Shown piece by piece: positions 1-48,777 of a DNA stretch of 64,000 bases. Under the pieces are notes generated by a model. The model did not search any database. It saw only the letters and a list, made by a program, of their open reading frames with translations, and was not told where the DNA came from. Within the stretch, counting starts at the first letter, position 1. Each line of letters starts with the position of its first letter. The stretch comes from Gammaproteobacteria bacterium (GTDB lineage Bacteria; Pseudomonadota; Gammaproteobacteria; UBA5861): assembly GCA_022360445.1 (NCBI GenBank), contig JAKSCV010000033.1, forward strand, positions 1 through 64,000, in the 5' to 3' direction. The translations under genes and the position numbers were made by a program.

Positions 1-555
1 ATCATCAGTGGTCGGCGGGGGAGTCGCCTCTTCTACAGCATGGCTGACATAAAGTATCGGAATCAACAGATCATCTTTCACCCATCTGATGTAAGGCAAG
101 ATGCTCTGTTTACTGCCCCAGCCCAAGACGACCAGCAGTTCGTCCATGAACACAATATCCGGAATTGCCAGCAAAGCTCTCACAATGGCTATGCGTTACC
201 GCTCTCTACCCGGGAGCGTCGTTTCGATCGCGCGCGATAGCAGATGACTAATACCCAGTATTTCAACCACTGCTTTCAGCTGAAAGCTGACATGAGTTTT
301 GGGCACCCTGTCGAACCCGTATTCAATATACGGCGCACTGAAGGTGAGAAACAAGGCTGACTTCCTGGAAAACATAGCCGACCTTTTGATGATGTATGCG
401 AACACTTTTATTGTTTTGCTTATGCAGCCAGCAGCTTGTGCCTACTTTTATGTAACCTGCCTGTGGTTTTTCAAGCTCTGTAATTGTGCGCAGAAAAATT
501 GTTTTGCCGGACCCGGATGGCCCGAGACAGCGCTGACAGCCGTACTTATCCATCT
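1..555 (-). pseudogene. modC: modC remnant (molybdate ABC transporter ATPase), frameshifted
   Basis: Reading the minus strand across several frames gives recognisable pieces of ModC. Near 553-490 there is a Walker A piece (GPSGSGKTIFLRTI), followed by a Q-loop piece (VGYVFQEVSLVSHL). Near 290-190 lies the degraded signature region (LPGRER then RIAIVRALLA). Near 175-25 lies the Walker B/D-loop/H-loop part (DIVFMDELLVVLGWGSKQ, then IPILYVSHAVEEA). The Walker B Asp-Glu pair is followed by Leu instead of Pro, and the pieces are in different frames with stops between them, so no functional ATPase can be made. The C-terminal MOP/TOBE part is not seen and would lie beyond the left edge. It pairs with the modB remnant just upstream on the same strand. 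Confidence 0.8.
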
Positions 556-639
556 AAGACCCACATTTAGTAAAAATTTTATGTAATGCCAGTTGGACTT
601 GAATATACAAACTACTTATTACGATGAGCGGTGACCCCA

Positions 640-1000
640 CCAGTTGAACCGGTAAATCGCCAACAACGTAGCGGTTGTGCAACAAAGGTTAATGAGTAAA
701 TCATGGAGCCAATCACCATCCCCGTGAACAAAGAGGCAAGGCGTTCCAAACCTGTTTTTTCAAAGAAAAAATCAAATATGTGAGGGCGATCAGGCCCATC
801 AGCAAATAAAAACCCAATACCGTGGAAGGTAACACCAAAGGCAGCGCAACTCCGCCGATAACAGATGTTTGGTTCAGTGGGTTATTCTCGCGAGCCATCA
901 AGCAACGGGAATGGATAACAACAGCAAGGTCGTTGTGATCACAGCTCATTTTATTGTTAACCAAGCAGGCATAAAATCCATCAAACGACGCGTCCAATCT
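640..1000 (-). pseudogene. modB: modB remnant (molybdate ABC transporter permease)
   Basis: Minus-strand reading gives the characteristic ModB membrane segment (ALPLVLPSTVLGFYLL) at about 870-820. After a frame change it gives LERLASLFTGMVIGSMIYSL and FVAQPL at about 755-660, which match the part of ModB following its loop. The pieces are in two frames and the C-terminal half is absent, so this is a truncated, frameshifted pseudogene. Its position upstream of the modC remnant fits the usual modABC order. No modA could be recognised upstream. Family assignment rests on motif recognition only. Confidence 0.75.
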
Positions 1001-1149
1001 TCAGCTTCTTAATCAATTTTTAGTCGGATTATTTGTAGTAGAATTGATTTTAATGTACCTCCTTGCCAAGCAGATCCCTCTATATAACGGTAACCATTTA
1101 TCTCACAACAACTTCACCGAATGGAGAGTAAAATAAACACTTAGTCAAT

Positions 1150-1780
1150 GGCTTAAGAAGGGCTTTATTCCTGGCTTTTGTGACCTTACCCTTTTCTGCC
1201 ACAGCTGAATAATCACAATGCCAAGAGTCCGTCCTATCAAACGATTGAAGTCATCGAAAATATCTGGATGCTTCAATGAAAGGGTGGAAATATCGGGGTT
1301 TTTACCGGTGTTCAAGGGACTGTACTGATTGATGATGATTATCAGGATATGTCAGATACTCTGAAAACGGCACTGGAGAAGTTTGGGGGTGCCGATTCAT
1401 TGAACGATATTATCAACACACATTGGCACGCTAATCACACCCAGGACAATCGGACTCTAGGTGGTAAAGCCTCCATTGTTGCACACGATAATGTCCGTAC
1501 CCGATTGCTCAGCAGCCAGAAGATGAAGTTATTCAAGATGGTCCCTGAGATTTACCCGATTGAGGCCGTTCCATCCATTGCTTATTCTCAAAAAATGACA
1601 TTGCACATAGATAGTGAAACCATCGAGATCGTCCATTTCCTGAATGATCATACCGGTGGCGATTCTGTGATTTTCTTTAGAAACGCCAATGTCGTCCATA
1701 CGGGTGGCCACTTTTTCTCAGGCTTTTTCCCTTTTGTCGACATTATTGATAACTTGATGAGTCTTTTGCGTTTTTCTTGA
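1150..1780 (+). pseudogene. Metallo-beta-lactamase-fold hydrolase, broken
   Basis: A degraded secreted metallo-hydrolase of the MBL-fold type that begins with a signal peptide. A signal-like segment (RALFLAFVTLPFSATAE) at about 1157-1207 ends in TAA. After a frame change the reading continues YQTIEVIENIWMLQ at about 1233-1274, then an in-frame TGA, then KGGNIGVFTGVQGTVLIDDD. From there the frame is open to 1780. The zinc motif normally HxHxDH reads HWHANH here, the later HTDGD motif reads HTGGD, and the usual Gly-Asp metal position reads Gly-Gly. The C-terminal third is missing. Together the stops, frame change, altered ligands and truncation mark a dead gene. A shorter protein could be translated from 1349 (143 codons) but would lack catalytic ligands. 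Confidence 0.75.
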
Positions 1781-22364: not shown

Positions 22365-22472
22365 ATAAAGTATAAATTTATTGACTCTTTCAGGCTTAAG
22401 AACGAGTGTATGATCAGTAATCTCTAAAACAACTTCTTTTCTATGTTAAATATGCTGAGTAAGATGGCCTAT

Positions 22473-23396
22473 CTATGCGCCAACAACTGGAATTTTATTT
22501 GATTCAGAGTCTTTCAGTTTTTCTGCAACGGATTGCTTAACCAAGGAGACGAGTTCTAAAATCGCACCCGGGCGAGTAAAGCTTTTGCGCCATGCCAGTA
22601 AAATTCTTCGTGAAGGACTAGGCTCAATTAGTTCGCAAGAAGTCAATAAATTATCCGCATAACTACCCATGTTGATAGCGTATTTTGGGAAAATACTGAT
22701 TCCTAAGTTAGATGCGACCATGTGCCGTATTGTCTCGAGAGAAGGGCTTTCGCTTTTTGTCCTCAGTGTAGGAAAAAATGACATAATTTGATCACGCAAA
22801 CAGTGATTTCGACTTAGCATTAACAGACTTTCTAGCCGTAACTCGGAAAATGGAATATGTTTTCTATTACCCCAAGGGTGGCCAATAGGTAGCACGAGTC
22901 GGAAAGGCTCGTCATAAAGAAGGGTCGTTTCAATACCGGGCTCTGAGAAAGGTTCGGAAACAATCACCGCATCCAATTCGCCTTTTTTCAGGCGGTTTTG
23001 GAGAACTAGTTTCGAGTTTTCTTCTGGGATGATGCGCAACCTGGATTGTGATCGGTGTGTTGTTAGAATTAATTTTGGCAGTAAATACTGTCCTATTGTT
23101 GTTAAAGCACCGAGCTTGATGGGGTCCGCGAGTTGGTCAATGCCTTCACTTGCGATCTGTTTAAGTAAATCAGACTCCTCCAGAATACGTTGGGCCTGCT
23201 CAATAATTCGCTTTCCGATTGCCGTGACGGTGACTTCGCTTTTACGGCGCTCGAATAAGGTAACATCCAGTTCTTCTTCGAGCTTTCTAACGGCCACGCT
23301 CAGAGTGGGTTGACTTACAAAACAGCTGCTTGCTGCACGTCCGAAGTGTCGCTCCCGTGCGACAGCGACAATATATTTAAATTCGGTTAATGTCAT
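22473..23396 (-). CDS. OxyR-like LysR regulator lacking Cys208
   Basis: LysR-type regulator of 307 residues. The N-terminal winged helix-turn-helix (residues 1-60: FGRAASSCFVSQPTLSVAV) and the effector domain closely resemble OxyR, the peroxide sensor. The sensing cysteine is conserved at the exact OxyR position (Cys199 in RNHCLRDQIMSFFPTL). The resolving cysteine Cys208 is replaced by Phe, so the classical Cys199-Cys208 disulfide cannot form. Other cysteines are Cys25 in the helix-turn-helix and one near the C terminus (LLTSCELIEPS), which might substitute. It may respond by a sulfenic acid or mixed disulfide. No catalase or peroxiredoxin gene is adjacent; the cold-shock gene lies upstream on the same strand. 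Confidence 0.85.
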   Translation of the reverse strand: MTLTEFKYIVAVARERHFGRAASSCFVSQPTLSVAVRKLEEELDVTLFERRKSEVTVTAIGKRIIEQAQRILEESDLLKQIASEGIDQLADPIKLGALTTIGQYLLPKLILTTHRSQSRLRIIPEENSKLVLQNRLKKGELDAVIVSEPFSEPGIETTLLYDEPFRLVLPIGHPWGNRKHIPFSELRLESLLMLSRNHCLRDQIMSFFPTLRTKSESPSLETIRHMVASNLGISIFPKYAINMGSYADNLLTSCELIEPSPSRRILLAWRKSFTRPGAILELVSLVKQSVAEKLKDSESNKIPVVGA

Positions 23397-23508
23397 TAGC
23401 CATCCACGCTAAATATCTGTATTTTAAAAATAAAACAGCCCTGTCCTTAAGGTTTCCGCACTTTTTAATAGTAATGCAGTTAAATACGGAGGTGAGCTTG
23501 ATTCCACA

Positions 23509-24020: not shown

Positions 24021-24254
24021 TCAGGAAACGTTTCTACGGGCTTTTTTGCGAGCAACTTTATGCAAGTAAAGTTGATAGAGATAGTCGTTAGGCCGAAGCC
24101 GTTGGAGAATTCTAAACAAGCGTTCGGCTTTATCGTAATTTCGTTTACGGTAATGCAAGATTGCTTTTTGGTGGAGTGATAGATATTGCTTGATTTGAGG
24201 TGTAGCTTCTAACTTGTTGCACACAGGTTCAAGCAGTTTGACATGCTTTTTCTT
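24021..24254 (-). pseudogene. C-terminal part of the adenylate cyclase, after an in-frame TGA
   Basis: This reading frame continues directly and in phase from the upstream cyclase gene. After VIRVK comes TGA (24257-24255), then KKKHVKLLEPVCNKLEATP and a TPR-like helix-rich end (HYRKRNYDKAERLFRILQRL). Related cyclases usually have Gly after the Val-Lys, so a single GGA-to-TGA change explains the break. The 67-residue part starting at GTG 24224 is open but has no good ribosome-binding site. It is best read as the lost C terminus of one original 440-residue gene spanning 24021-25343. Confidence 0.75.
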
Positions 24255-25343
24255 TCATTTTACGCGAATAACATCTAAGTCACGGAAGAAAATGCCAGGG
24301 ATTAAAAGAGCCGTTTCTTTACTTAAAATAATGGGCACCTTATAGGTGCGTGTTTGAGACTCAAGTCTTTCTGCAGTATTGACGGTATCGCCGATAACGG
24401 TGTAGGCCATTCGGTACTTAGAACCAATGTTTCCGACGTTTGTTTCACCACTGCTCAAGCCGATACCTACGTGGATCTCAGGTTTTCCTTCAGCCTTAAA
24501 ACGCTCATTCATAGGAATGAGTTCACGTTGAATTTCCATGGCCGCTTCTAAGGCGGCGCTTGCGTGGTCTGGATTCGGCACGGGCGCTCCCCAAAAAGCC
24601 ATGATGCAATCACCCATGTATTTATCAATGGTTCCCTCGTATCGGATAATGATTTCACTGGCCATCGAAAAGAAGTCATTTAGCCATGTGGCAAGCTCAC
24701 GAGGAGAGAGGCTCTCGGATATTGTTGAAAAACCTTGAATGTCACAGAACATAACGGTCAATTCACGCGACTCACCTTTGAGATTCACTGCCTCTGGATT
24801 ATCTGAATAGAGTGAAACCAGTTCGGGAGGGATATATTGACAAAGCATATTTGTCATTTGTCTTCGGCCTTTATACTCAGCGTAAAAGCTGAGTAAGAAA
24901 TAACCGAAGAAAAGCAGTGCTAACGAAGTCAATCCTACTTTAAGAATCAGTTCACTGTTATTGGGAGGGGCATTGTATGCAAGCAAAAAGATAAAAATTG
25001 CGACAACAATAATTAAAAAAGACGCTTGAATGAGTCGTAAATAAGACAAGGCACCAGCAACTAAAAAGCAAGCCGCTTGGGCGACCAAAAAGGAGACGCT
25101 GTAGTTGTAAGAAGGAAAATTGTCTGGGGCGAGAAGCGGTGACAAGACAAGGGTGTCAAAATTGGCCAACACTTCCCAGGTCGAACTAAAGCTCACTGGA
25201 ACGTTGAGGTAAGTCAGGGGTATGGACAGAAAAAATACAATAAGCTGGATACTGAACAAAATAAAAACGATCTGCCGGCTAGCCTGGTTTTTCTTAAAGA
25301 TGGGGAAAAAGCCCGCTGATTTGTTTTTATCTTTATACCTCAT
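24255..25343 (-). CDS. Class III adenylate cyclase with membrane N terminus, truncated
   Basis: Makes cyclic AMP from ATP. The N-terminal 160 residues hold about five membrane segments (for example VFILFSIQLIVFFLSIPLTY). The catalytic domain follows: ELTVMFCDIQGFSTISESL with the first metal Asp, then TIDKYMGDCIMAFWGAP with the second metal Asp and a Lys typical of adenine recognition, and YTVIGDTVNTAERLE with the purine-contact Asp. The catalytic domain is complete, but the protein ends at an in-frame TGA at 24257-24255 where homologues continue. 362 residues as translated. The enzyme may still be active because all catalytic residues precede the stop. Confidence 0.88.
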   Translation of the reverse strand: MRYKDKNKSAGFFPIFKKNQASRQIVFILFSIQLIVFFLSIPLTYLNVPVSFSSTWEVLANFDTLVLSPLLAPDNFPSYNYSVSFLVAQAACFLVAGALSYLRLIQASFLIIVVAIFIFLLAYNAPPNNSELILKVGLTSLALLFFGYFLLSFYAEYKGRRQMTNMLCQYIPPELVSLYSDNPEAVNLKGESRELTVMFCDIQGFSTISESLSPRELATWLNDFFSMASEIIIRYEGTIDKYMGDCIMAFWGAPVPNPDHASAALEAAMEIQRELIPMNERFKAEGKPEIHVGIGLSSGETNVGNIGSKYRMAYTVIGDTVNTAERLESQTRTYKVPIILSKETALLIPGIFFRDLDVIRVK

Positions 25344-25534
25344 AGCGACCCAAACCGTTCATTATTGTATGTTCTTATCAAAGTATTACACTAAATCGGA
25401 CTTATGTAATTCCCTTATTTTCGGGATGGTCTGATTGTGCCCAATTTGGGTTTTTTTGTGTAGTTTAGTACATTGGGAAATATTACAAACGTATTATCGA
25501 CCATGATAACTGGATATTGAATGAGGCGTTAACC

Positions 25535-26254
25535 GTGAGTCAAAAAAAATCATTTGCAATTCATGCCCTTGAACTAGGCCCGATGGAGAACTTTATCCAC
25601 ATCGTTCACGACTTTGAAACAGGTTCAGCCGCTGTCGTTGATCCCGCATGGGATGTGCCGACTATTTTAGACTCTGTAGACAAACTTGAGGCTCGGGTGA
25701 CAGATATCCTACTCACGCATAGTCATCGAGATCATGTTAACGGTGTTGATGAGTTACGAGAAGCATCGGGTGCAAATTTACACATTCATGAGGCCGAATA
25801 TGCGTTCTGGGCACAGAAACCCGAGAATACTACTTTGCACCAAGACGGTGATCAAGTTCGAATAGGGGCAACAACATTTACATGGATTCACACCCCCGGT
25901 CACACACCTGGTTCATCATGTTTTTATTTTCCAGACCACCTAATTACGGGTGACACACTGTTTGTTTACGGTTGTGGGCGTTGCGACCTTCCCGGAGGGA
26001 GTCCTGAAAGCATGTTCAATGCGCTCGAGCGTTTAAAGGGTATGCCTAAAAAAACCATTATTCACCCTGGTCATAACTATTCAATACAAACAACATCGAC
26101 GATTGAAGAAGAAATCGTGGGTAATCCTTTTATGCACTGGGAAGACTTGGAAGCTTTTACCCGCTATCGCCTCGTCGAACATGAGCGAACCCGTCAGTCT
26201 CCCTATGGCCCTATAACCAAATCAGATCTTAAAGCCGCGGGATTAATGCAGTAG
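25535..26254 (+). CDS. MBL-fold hydrolase, glyoxalase II-like
   Basis: Metallo-hydrolase of about 239 residues with intact binuclear zinc ligands: LTHSHRDHVNG (HxHxDH), HTPGHTPGS, TGDTLF and IIHPGHNY. The stretch GCGRCDLPGGSPESMF resembles both glyoxalase II (S-D-lactoylglutathione hydrolysis) and persulfide-dioxygenase relatives, so substrate is not certain. The start is GTG 25535, chosen because GAGG lies eight bases upstream; an in-frame TTG at 25517 is possible. It is divergent from the cyclase gene and converges on the IMPase-fold gene 4 bp downstream. Confidence 0.85.
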   Translation: MSQKKSFAIHALELGPMENFIHIVHDFETGSAAVVDPAWDVPTILDSVDKLEARVTDILLTHSHRDHVNGVDELREASGANLHIHEAEYAFWAQKPENTTLHQDGDQVRIGATTFTWIHTPGHTPGSSCFYFPDHLITGDTLFVYGCGRCDLPGGSPESMFNALERLKGMPKKTIIHPGHNYSIQTTSTIEEEIVGNPFMHWEDLEAFTRYRLVEHERTRQSPYGPITKSDLKAAGLMQ

Positions 26255-47106: not shown

Positions 47107-47166
47107 TTTGTTTTAAAGGCCGAAGTTCAGGTTACTAACTTAAATTGTATGCAATGGACGAACGCC

Positions 47167-48777
47167 ATGAAACAACTTTCTATCCGTTACAAAATCCTTT
47201 CGGTTGCTGCTGTTGGAGTAATCGGCTTTTTCATTTATTTAGGTGCGAATTATGTTACGGGCAGCACAAATGTGAAGAGCATGGGAGGTGTTGTCAATAA
47301 ACACTTCCCGATTTTACAGCAAGTCGATCAGGCGAAAGTGCGCGTTTTGCAAATTGAGGAGCTATATAAAGGTCTCGGTGCAAGTGGAGACATGGATTTA
47401 TTAGAAAGTGCTCAGGAAAAGCGGCAAGAGTTTGTCAAGTTGATGAATGAAGTGGCCATTATAACTCCCGAGCTTGAAGGTAAAACGACCGCTGTAAAAA
47501 ATAAACTGGAGCAGTGGGCGGATTCGGCGGAAACAATTTCTCGTGGCATGGCCGAGGGTACCCTTGATTTCTCGACGATTTCAGAAAAAGCCGATCAGAT
47601 GGCGGCACTTAAGAAAGTGCTTGATACAGACCTGTCCGAGTTTCGTCAGAATCGGTACCTTGCCTTCAAAGGTGCGGTTGATTCGGCTATCAAAAATACA
47701 GAGTCAGCGCTTATGTTTGGCTTACTTATGGGTGTTGTCATGATTATCACTATGTCAGTCACGGCCATACTGATTACGGGTATGTTGATGAGAAACCTCA
47801 GTAATGTGATTACATCAATGCGGGAAATCGCCGCAGGTGATGGTGATTTAACCCAACGAATTCAAACCAGCAGCAAAGATGAAATGGGTGACTTGGTTTT
47901 TTGTTTCAACCAGGTCATGGACAATTTGCATGAGATTGTGAAGCAAACATCTCAGACGGCAGCACAGTTAGGTAACGAGTCTGAATCGTTATCGAGTGGG
48001 ACTGTGCAAACGGAACAACGCATGCAACAGCAACGGGAAGAAGTGGATGGATTGGCCTCTTCTATTAATGAAATGGGCGAAACTGTTAAAAATGTAGCTG
48101 CCAATGCGGCAAGTGCGGCTGATGCGGCTAATGACGCGAATAGGGATGCCTCCGATGGTCAAAATATTGTCGTGAGAGCGGTTGATTCCATCAATAAATT
48201 GGCAGAAGAAGTGGACCGGGGCACCTCTACTATCCAGCAGCTTGCTGATGACACGGTGCAGGTTGGGACGGTTTTGGATGTCATTGGTGGCATTGCAGAG
48301 CAAACGAACTTATTGGCGCTCAATGCTGCCATTGAAGCTGCGCGGGCCGGTGAGCAGGGGCGAGGGTTTGCCGTTGTGGCTGATGAGGTTCGGACCTTGG
48401 CCTCGCGCACTCAGGAGTCAACCCAGGAAATTCAAAACATGATTGAGAAGCTGCAATCAGGCGTGCAAGCCGCGGTCAGCGTGATGGAGTCGAGTAAAGA
48501 GCAGGCGAAATCCAGTGTTGAGCAAGCGTCATCCGCAGGTGATGCCTTGACTTCCATTACAGGGAAAGTGTCTACAATCAAAGACATGAATATCCAGATT
48601 GCACAAGCTACCGAGCAACAGGAGAGCCTCTCCAGCATTATTCAGGCTAACGCGAACAATATTTTGCAGATTACACAAGCGTCTTCTGATGCGGCCGAGC
48701 ATTCATCGCAATCCAGTCAGGCACTTAATGACCTGGCCCATGAGTTGCTTGCGGTTGTGAGCAAGTTCAAAGCTTGA
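47167..48777 (+). CDS. Methyl-accepting chemotaxis protein
   Basis: About 536 residues. An N-terminal membrane segment ([20 protein letters not shown]), a periplasmic helical sensor domain (about 30-180), a second membrane segment ([20 protein letters not shown]), a HAMP domain ([20 protein letters not shown]) and the cytoplasmic signalling hairpin with tip [20 protein letters not shown] then [14 protein letters not shown]. There is no C-terminal CheR-docking pentapeptide. The periplasmic sensor is of the four-helix type with no motif that names a ligand. ATG 47167 gives the typical basic start [12 protein letters not shown] 47149 is also possible. It lies 23 bp upstream of the porin-like gene. 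Confidence 0.94.

What the first reader, a model, noticed from the sequence alone, without database searches (positions are those of the whole stretch)
24021..25343. Adenylate cyclase interrupted by an in-frame TGA at a conserved glycine
The frame runs through TGA (24257-24255) without shift. The sequence before and after matches one cyclase: VIRVK, stop, KKKHVKLL. Homologues usually have Gly after Val-Lys, and GGA to TGA is one base. The catalytic domain is whole, so the product may be active but lacks its C-terminal TPR-like part. It could be recent inactivation, readthrough, or an assembly error.
Basis: seen in the sequence. Interest (0 to 1): 0.5.

Follow-up and report, generated by a model that had tools for sequence, protein, structure and literature searches.

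The report
Adenylate cyclase cut by nonsense base
In this environmental bacterium the gene for a membrane-bound enzyme that makes the signal molecule cyclic AMP carries one premature stop codon just before its enzyme domain ends, which is an ordinary broken copy (or a single-base sequence error), because the relatives that could be compared are uninterrupted there.

Summary
A TGA (24257-24255, minus strand) interrupts one open frame, 24021-25343, without a frameshift. The same-genus relative (MAG UBA5861) has an uninterrupted 444-codon gene with a glycine codon there; 103 of 107 more distant homologues align across the site and all 103 have Gly. So the gene is not naturally short. "The catalytic domain is whole" fails: the stop lies in the turn before the last beta-strand of the class III cyclase fold, so that strand is lost as well as a helical, weakly TPR-like tail. 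Catalytic residues are kept. The 77 tail codons show 9 synonymous and 0 amino-acid differences from the relative: the stop is very recent, an error, or read through. No UGA-reading tRNA was found among 33 (an incomplete set), no SelB, no UGA reassignment. It is the only lone nonsense change in an otherwise intact gene among 195 stop comparisons. The genome has a CRP, one class III cyclase and no class I cyclase. Most likely a recent loss-of-function allele; a consensus error cannot be excluded without reads. Ordinary.

The parts
24258..25343 (-). Truncated open frame, 362 codons: N-terminal helical (probably membrane) part plus most of a class III nucleotidyl cyclase domain
   Evidence: PF00211 76.4 bits against a cut-off of 21.9; helices in the relative's model, membrane location inferred
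24255..24257 (-). In-frame TGA at the position of a conserved glycine (codon 363; residue 367 of the relative)
   Evidence: Gly in 103 of 103 homologues aligned across the site, of 107 extracted
24021..24254 (-). Rest of the frame: 77 codons plus the natural stop 24023-24021; encodes the last strand of the catalytic domain and a three-helix, weakly TPR-like tail
   Evidence: TPR_2 below cut-off
24210..24779 (-). Extent of the catalytic domain by structural alignment of the relative to CyaB (relative's residues 193-382); 24210-24254 lies beyond the stop
   Evidence: coordinates converted and checked
24216..24242 (-). Last beta-strand of the catalytic domain (relative's residues 372-380), lost by the stop
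   Evidence: coordinates checked
24609..24611 (-). Conserved Asp (relative's D249); with D205 (window 24741-24743) the pair expected to bind metal; both before the stop
   Evidence: 36 of 36 homologues in A1 have Asp at both columns; coordinates checked; metal-binding role recalled from class III cyclases

Best explanation
A very recent single-base nonsense substitution (Gly codon to TGA) in the genome sampled. Translation stops after codon 362, inside the last beta-hairpin of the class III cyclase domain. The product keeps the N-terminal helical part and the catalytic residues but lacks the last strand of the catalytic fold and the helical tail, so it is most likely misfolded or inactive (inferred). 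Since this is the only class III cyclase found and the genome encodes a CRP, the likely consequence is little or no cAMP for CRP in this strain (inferred).
For: Relative intact with Gly at the site; Gly in 103 of 103 homologues aligned across it, of 107 extracted. Stop lies before the last strand (Pfam profile extends past it). Rest of the frame undecayed: 9 synonymous, 0 nonsynonymous differences, as a recent change predicts. Only lone nonsense change in an otherwise intact gene among 195 own-to-relative stop comparisons (53 in the window, 142 in a second sample; 25 further frames skipped), so the sampled sequence is not generally error-ridden. One PF00211 hit in the genome, no class I cyclase, CRP over the equivalog cut-off.
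Against: A single base in one assembly, with no reads to support it. The untouched tail fits a consensus error or a minority-strain base equally well, and fits readthrough too. A CYTH-domain protein (a family that includes class IV cyclases, recalled) is present in both genomes, so cAMP may have another source. Loss of activity is inferred from the fold, not measured.
Confidence: 0.55

Rival explanations
1. Consensus, assembly or strain-mixture error: the organism's gene is intact and the TGA is a wrong or minority base in one assembly.
For: One base, nothing else decayed, 77 of 77 downstream residues kept. The genome is in 110 contigs with 1.87% estimated contamination, as in draft or metagenome assemblies. 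The change is G to T on the coding strand, a class also produced by oxidative damage in libraries (recalled).
Against: No other lone nonsense change in an otherwise intact gene in 195 stop comparisons with the relative, so errors are not frequent; but one error in the window cannot be excluded by that.
Confidence: 0.35
2. Leaky stop: UGA is read through (most often as Trp), giving some full-length enzyme.
For: Tail still looks selected. In E. coli TGA is the leakiest stop and is mostly read as Trp (PMC11126739, passages seen).
Against: Gly in 103 of 103 aligned homologues, so a Trp in that turn would probably harm the fold (inferred). None of the 33 tRNAs found has an anticodon for UGA, though that set holds no tRNA-Ile and is thus incomplete; tRNA-Trp has an ordinary 5-bp anticodon stem (read by eye); SelB is absent at cut-off; Rfam finds nothing in the window at gathering scores. 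No homologue aligned across the site has a stop there, so a programmed signal is not conserved.
Confidence: 0.06
3. Naturally short but active cyclase, the tail being dispensable.
For: Six checked conserved residues are kept in the truncated product. A few homologues end sooner after the Gly (22 residues in L057; 35, 37, 37 and 39 in L020, L021, L025 and L026).
Against: Those too continue past the Gly far enough to hold the final strand; none of 103 ends at the site. The relative's frame is 444 codons. The last strand of the catalytic fold is lost.
Confidence: 0.04

Closest known systems
Class III adenylate/guanylate cyclase domain (PF00211), for example P. aeruginosa CyaB (3r5g)
   Same: PF00211 over cut-off; the relative's model aligns to 3r5g_A with Z 27.2, rmsd 1.6, 188 residues; Asp/Lys/Asn/Arg columns kept
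   Different: The window's copy stops before the last strand of the domain and has lost its tail
CHASE2-type proteobacterial adenylate cyclases with an 80-90 residue C-terminal helical tail
   Same: Same order of cyclase domain, VKGK turn and tail in most of the 103 homologues
   Different: Neither the window protein nor its same-genus relative has a CHASE2 match; they have a short N-terminal helical part instead
Ordinary nonsense alleles and young pseudogenes
   Same: Single stop in an otherwise intact, conserved frame
   Different: Nothing beyond the position, in the last hairpin of the catalytic fold

Membership tests
Class III nucleotidyl cyclase (PF00211) | Profile match over the curated cut-off | tested here: met
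   76.4 bits against 21.9 for the 362-codon product
Class III nucleotidyl cyclase (PF00211) | Conserved catalytic residues (two metal Asp, Lys, Asp, Asn, Arg) | tested here: met
   Present at all six columns checked in A1, all before the stop; roles recalled
Class III nucleotidyl cyclase (PF00211) | Complete catalytic fold including the last beta-strand | tested here: not met
   Stop at residue 367 of the relative, strand 372-380 lost; CyaB aligned to residue 382
Class III nucleotidyl cyclase (PF00211) | Cyclase activity | not testable with these tools
   Needs an assay
CHASE2 adenylate cyclase | N-terminal CHASE2 domain (PF05226) | tested here: not met
   No CHASE2 match for the window product (E up to 1) or for the relative's 444 aa (E up to 0.01); 29 of the 38 members of A1 match it, most members being cut to their last 444 residues
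TPR repeat tail | TPR profile over cut-off | tested here: not met
   TPR_2 21.0 bits against 27 for the 77-codon tail
Selenoprotein | SelB in the genome | tested here: not met
   Over the cut-off in 0 of 2 genomes; weaker matches (9 in G000, best 191.1 bits against a cut-off of 242.25) are taken as other translation GTPases
Suppressed or recoded UGA | A tRNA whose anticodon reads UGA | tested here: inconclusive
   None among the 33 tRNAs found in the genome, but the set lacks tRNA-Ile and is thus incomplete
Pseudogene by nonsense mutation | Orthologue intact at the same site | tested here: met
Pseudogene by nonsense mutation | Stop present in the organism's reads | not testable with these tools
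   No reads held

The most novel reading that the evidence does not exclude
The stop is real and leaky, so that the only class III cyclase found in a genome that encodes CRP is made in full only at the UGA-readthrough level, turning a point nonsense change into a low-output setting of cAMP signalling.
Probability: 0.04. Interest if true: 0.45.

Novelty: new member of a known kind. Interest (0 to 1): 0.12.

Why it matters
If real, it is a natural strain-level loss of the one class III adenylate cyclase found in a bacterium that encodes CRP. It corrects the idea that the truncated product has a complete catalytic domain. It does not point to new biology.

Tried and rejected
Naturally short gene: rejected; the relative and all 103 homologues that align across the site continue past it (4 of the 107 extracted, L022, L024, L027 and L029, did not align across it and were not counted). 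Frameshift: none.

UGA reassignment: in the two samples 51 of 61 TGA stops fall at the same codon in the relative (11 of 14 and 40 of 47), and the differing ones are mostly short wobbles of the C-terminus. Told against this: TGA stops differ from the relative more often (10 of 61) than TAA or TAG stops (4 of 134), but the reverse comparison leans the same way (TGA 5 of 60, TAA/TAG 3 of 137), so it is no property of this genome alone. No significance was computed. Frames skipped because they matched below 75% or not to the end: 3, 10, 22 and 23 in the four comparisons.

Other in-frame stops: one search listed 4 (relative C20 to window) and 10 (relative C44 to own C63) relative frames with a stop in the own genome. 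Most lie near either end of the frame. Two further mid-frame cases: a membrane-protein gene near 144.4 kb of own C63 with a TGA at a Trp position but with other lesions, an ordinary decayed gene; and a 119-codon frame of the relative with an own TGA at codon 59 and the rest kept (own C63 23097-23456), which lies antisense to a longer own frame (22460-23446) and is taken as non-coding. It was not put to a coding test.

Selenocysteine: SelB absent at cut-off. Suppressor tRNA: none found in an incomplete set. RNA element: no Rfam match in the window. tRNA genes in the window: none.

Two apparent 70-residue deletions against the relative were runs of N in the relative's scaffolds; my notebook entry, which lists one as a real difference, is wrong there.

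Paper searches: (6 searches). Nothing listed there described this gene (searches listed nothing; one search showed 12 of 1,625, 10 of 76). I saw passages of PMC11126739; for the others only the listings and starts of abstracts.

Full report
Observation. The minus-strand frame 25343 to 24021 is open except for TGA at 24257-24255. The 362-codon product matches the class III cyclase catalytic domain (PF00211, 76.4 bits against a cut-off of 21.9). The 77 codons after the stop stay in frame and end at TGA 24023-24021.

Relatives. The window is the first 64,000 bases of contig C71 of a 3.46-Mb genome in 110 contigs. In a search of 56 genomes, own included, the only other genome of the genus is G001; its stretch is also held as Halothiobacillaceae bacterium UBA5861, DJFX01000053.1. 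Its gene is uninterrupted, 444 codons, with a Gly codon at the site. I extracted 107 more distant homologous frames (28, 79, which kept the best 80 of 576 confirmed relatives from a capped list). Of these 103 align across the site and all 103 have Gly; most continue for about 80-90 residues. The gene is therefore not naturally short.

Where the stop falls. The Pfam cyclase profile reaches position 175 of 183 in this genome only by running through the stop, and 176 in the relative. An AlphaFold2 model of the relative's protein (mean pLDDT 84.7; 92-98 for residues 201-310 and 321-440 in blocks of ten, 80 for 311-320) ends the cyclase fold with strands 355-363 and 372-380; residue 367, the stop's position, lies in the turn. 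The first 80 residues are modelled poorly (39-66). CyaB of P. aeruginosa aligns over model residues 193-382 with Z 27.2, rmsd 1.6 and 188 residues. So the truncated product lacks the last strand and three tail helices (386-403, 407-420, 425-442). The catalytic residues checked are all before the stop and conserved (36 of 36 homologues at five columns, 35 of 36 at the sixth). Complete residues do not make a complete fold: I judge the product probably inactive, which is inference.

Age. Against the relative there are 23 synonymous and 13 nonsynonymous differences in codons 1-165, 40 and 1 in the catalytic part up to the stop, and 9 and 0 after it. If about half of the nine changes had arisen under no selection, zero amino-acid changes would have a chance of about 0.1-0.6% (a rough model). 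The stop is thus much younger than the split from the relative, or is not in the organism, or is read through.

Error or real. In orthologous frames of the window, 50 of 53 stops fall at the same codon in the relative; of the 3 that differ, two are short C-terminal differences (3 and 9 residues) and one is this gene (3 frames skipped). In a second sample (200 kb of own contig C63) 131 of 142 agree and 22 were skipped. Of the 11 that differ, one keeps a conserved frame after the stop, in a gene with other lesions. One further 119-codon relative frame with an own TGA at codon 59 lies antisense to a longer own frame and is taken as non-coding. The own sequence has no N in either sample. The sequence is thus not error-ridden, but a single wrong base cannot be excluded.

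Decoding. None of the 33 tRNAs found has an anticodon for UGA; the set holds no tRNA-Ile, so it is incomplete and this is weak evidence. tRNA-Trp has a 5-bp anticodon stem (read by eye). SelB is over the cut-off in 0 of 2 genomes. No Rfam family reaches its gathering score in the window.

Role. The genome has one PF00211 match, no class I cyclase (PF12633), one CYTH protein of untested function and, among seven cNMP-binding matches, a protein over the NCBIfam cut-off for CRP, 341.9 against 266 bits (two of the seven were scanned). The natural reading is that this cyclase feeds CRP; the stop would then silence that path in this strain. This link is inferred.

Verdict. An ordinary, recent nonsense allele of a conserved, probably membrane-bound class III cyclase, or a single-base error in the assembly.

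Noticed in passing
window 25303-25476: A 174-base run identical to the same-genus relative, spanning the promoter side and the first codons of the cyclase gene; the longest identical run in the window's alignments, the next being 137. Possibly a conserved regulatory region between the cyclase gene and the divergent metallo-hydrolase gene at 25517-26254.
   Followed up: partly
window 1-1743: Frames of the relative match here at 65-74% protein identity with 1, 3 and 6 stops: probably decayed genes at the contig end.
   Followed up: no
own genome contig C63, about 143.9-144.7 kb (L182): A membrane protein gene with an in-frame TGA at a Trp position plus other lesions, next to remains of a CoA-transferase-like gene (labels recalled): ordinary decay.
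   Followed up: partly
L112:19432-19702 and L187:3364-3630: Runs of N inside genes of the relative's scaffolds mimic 70-residue insertions, one of them opposite the chemotaxis gene at window 47149-48777.
   Followed up: yes
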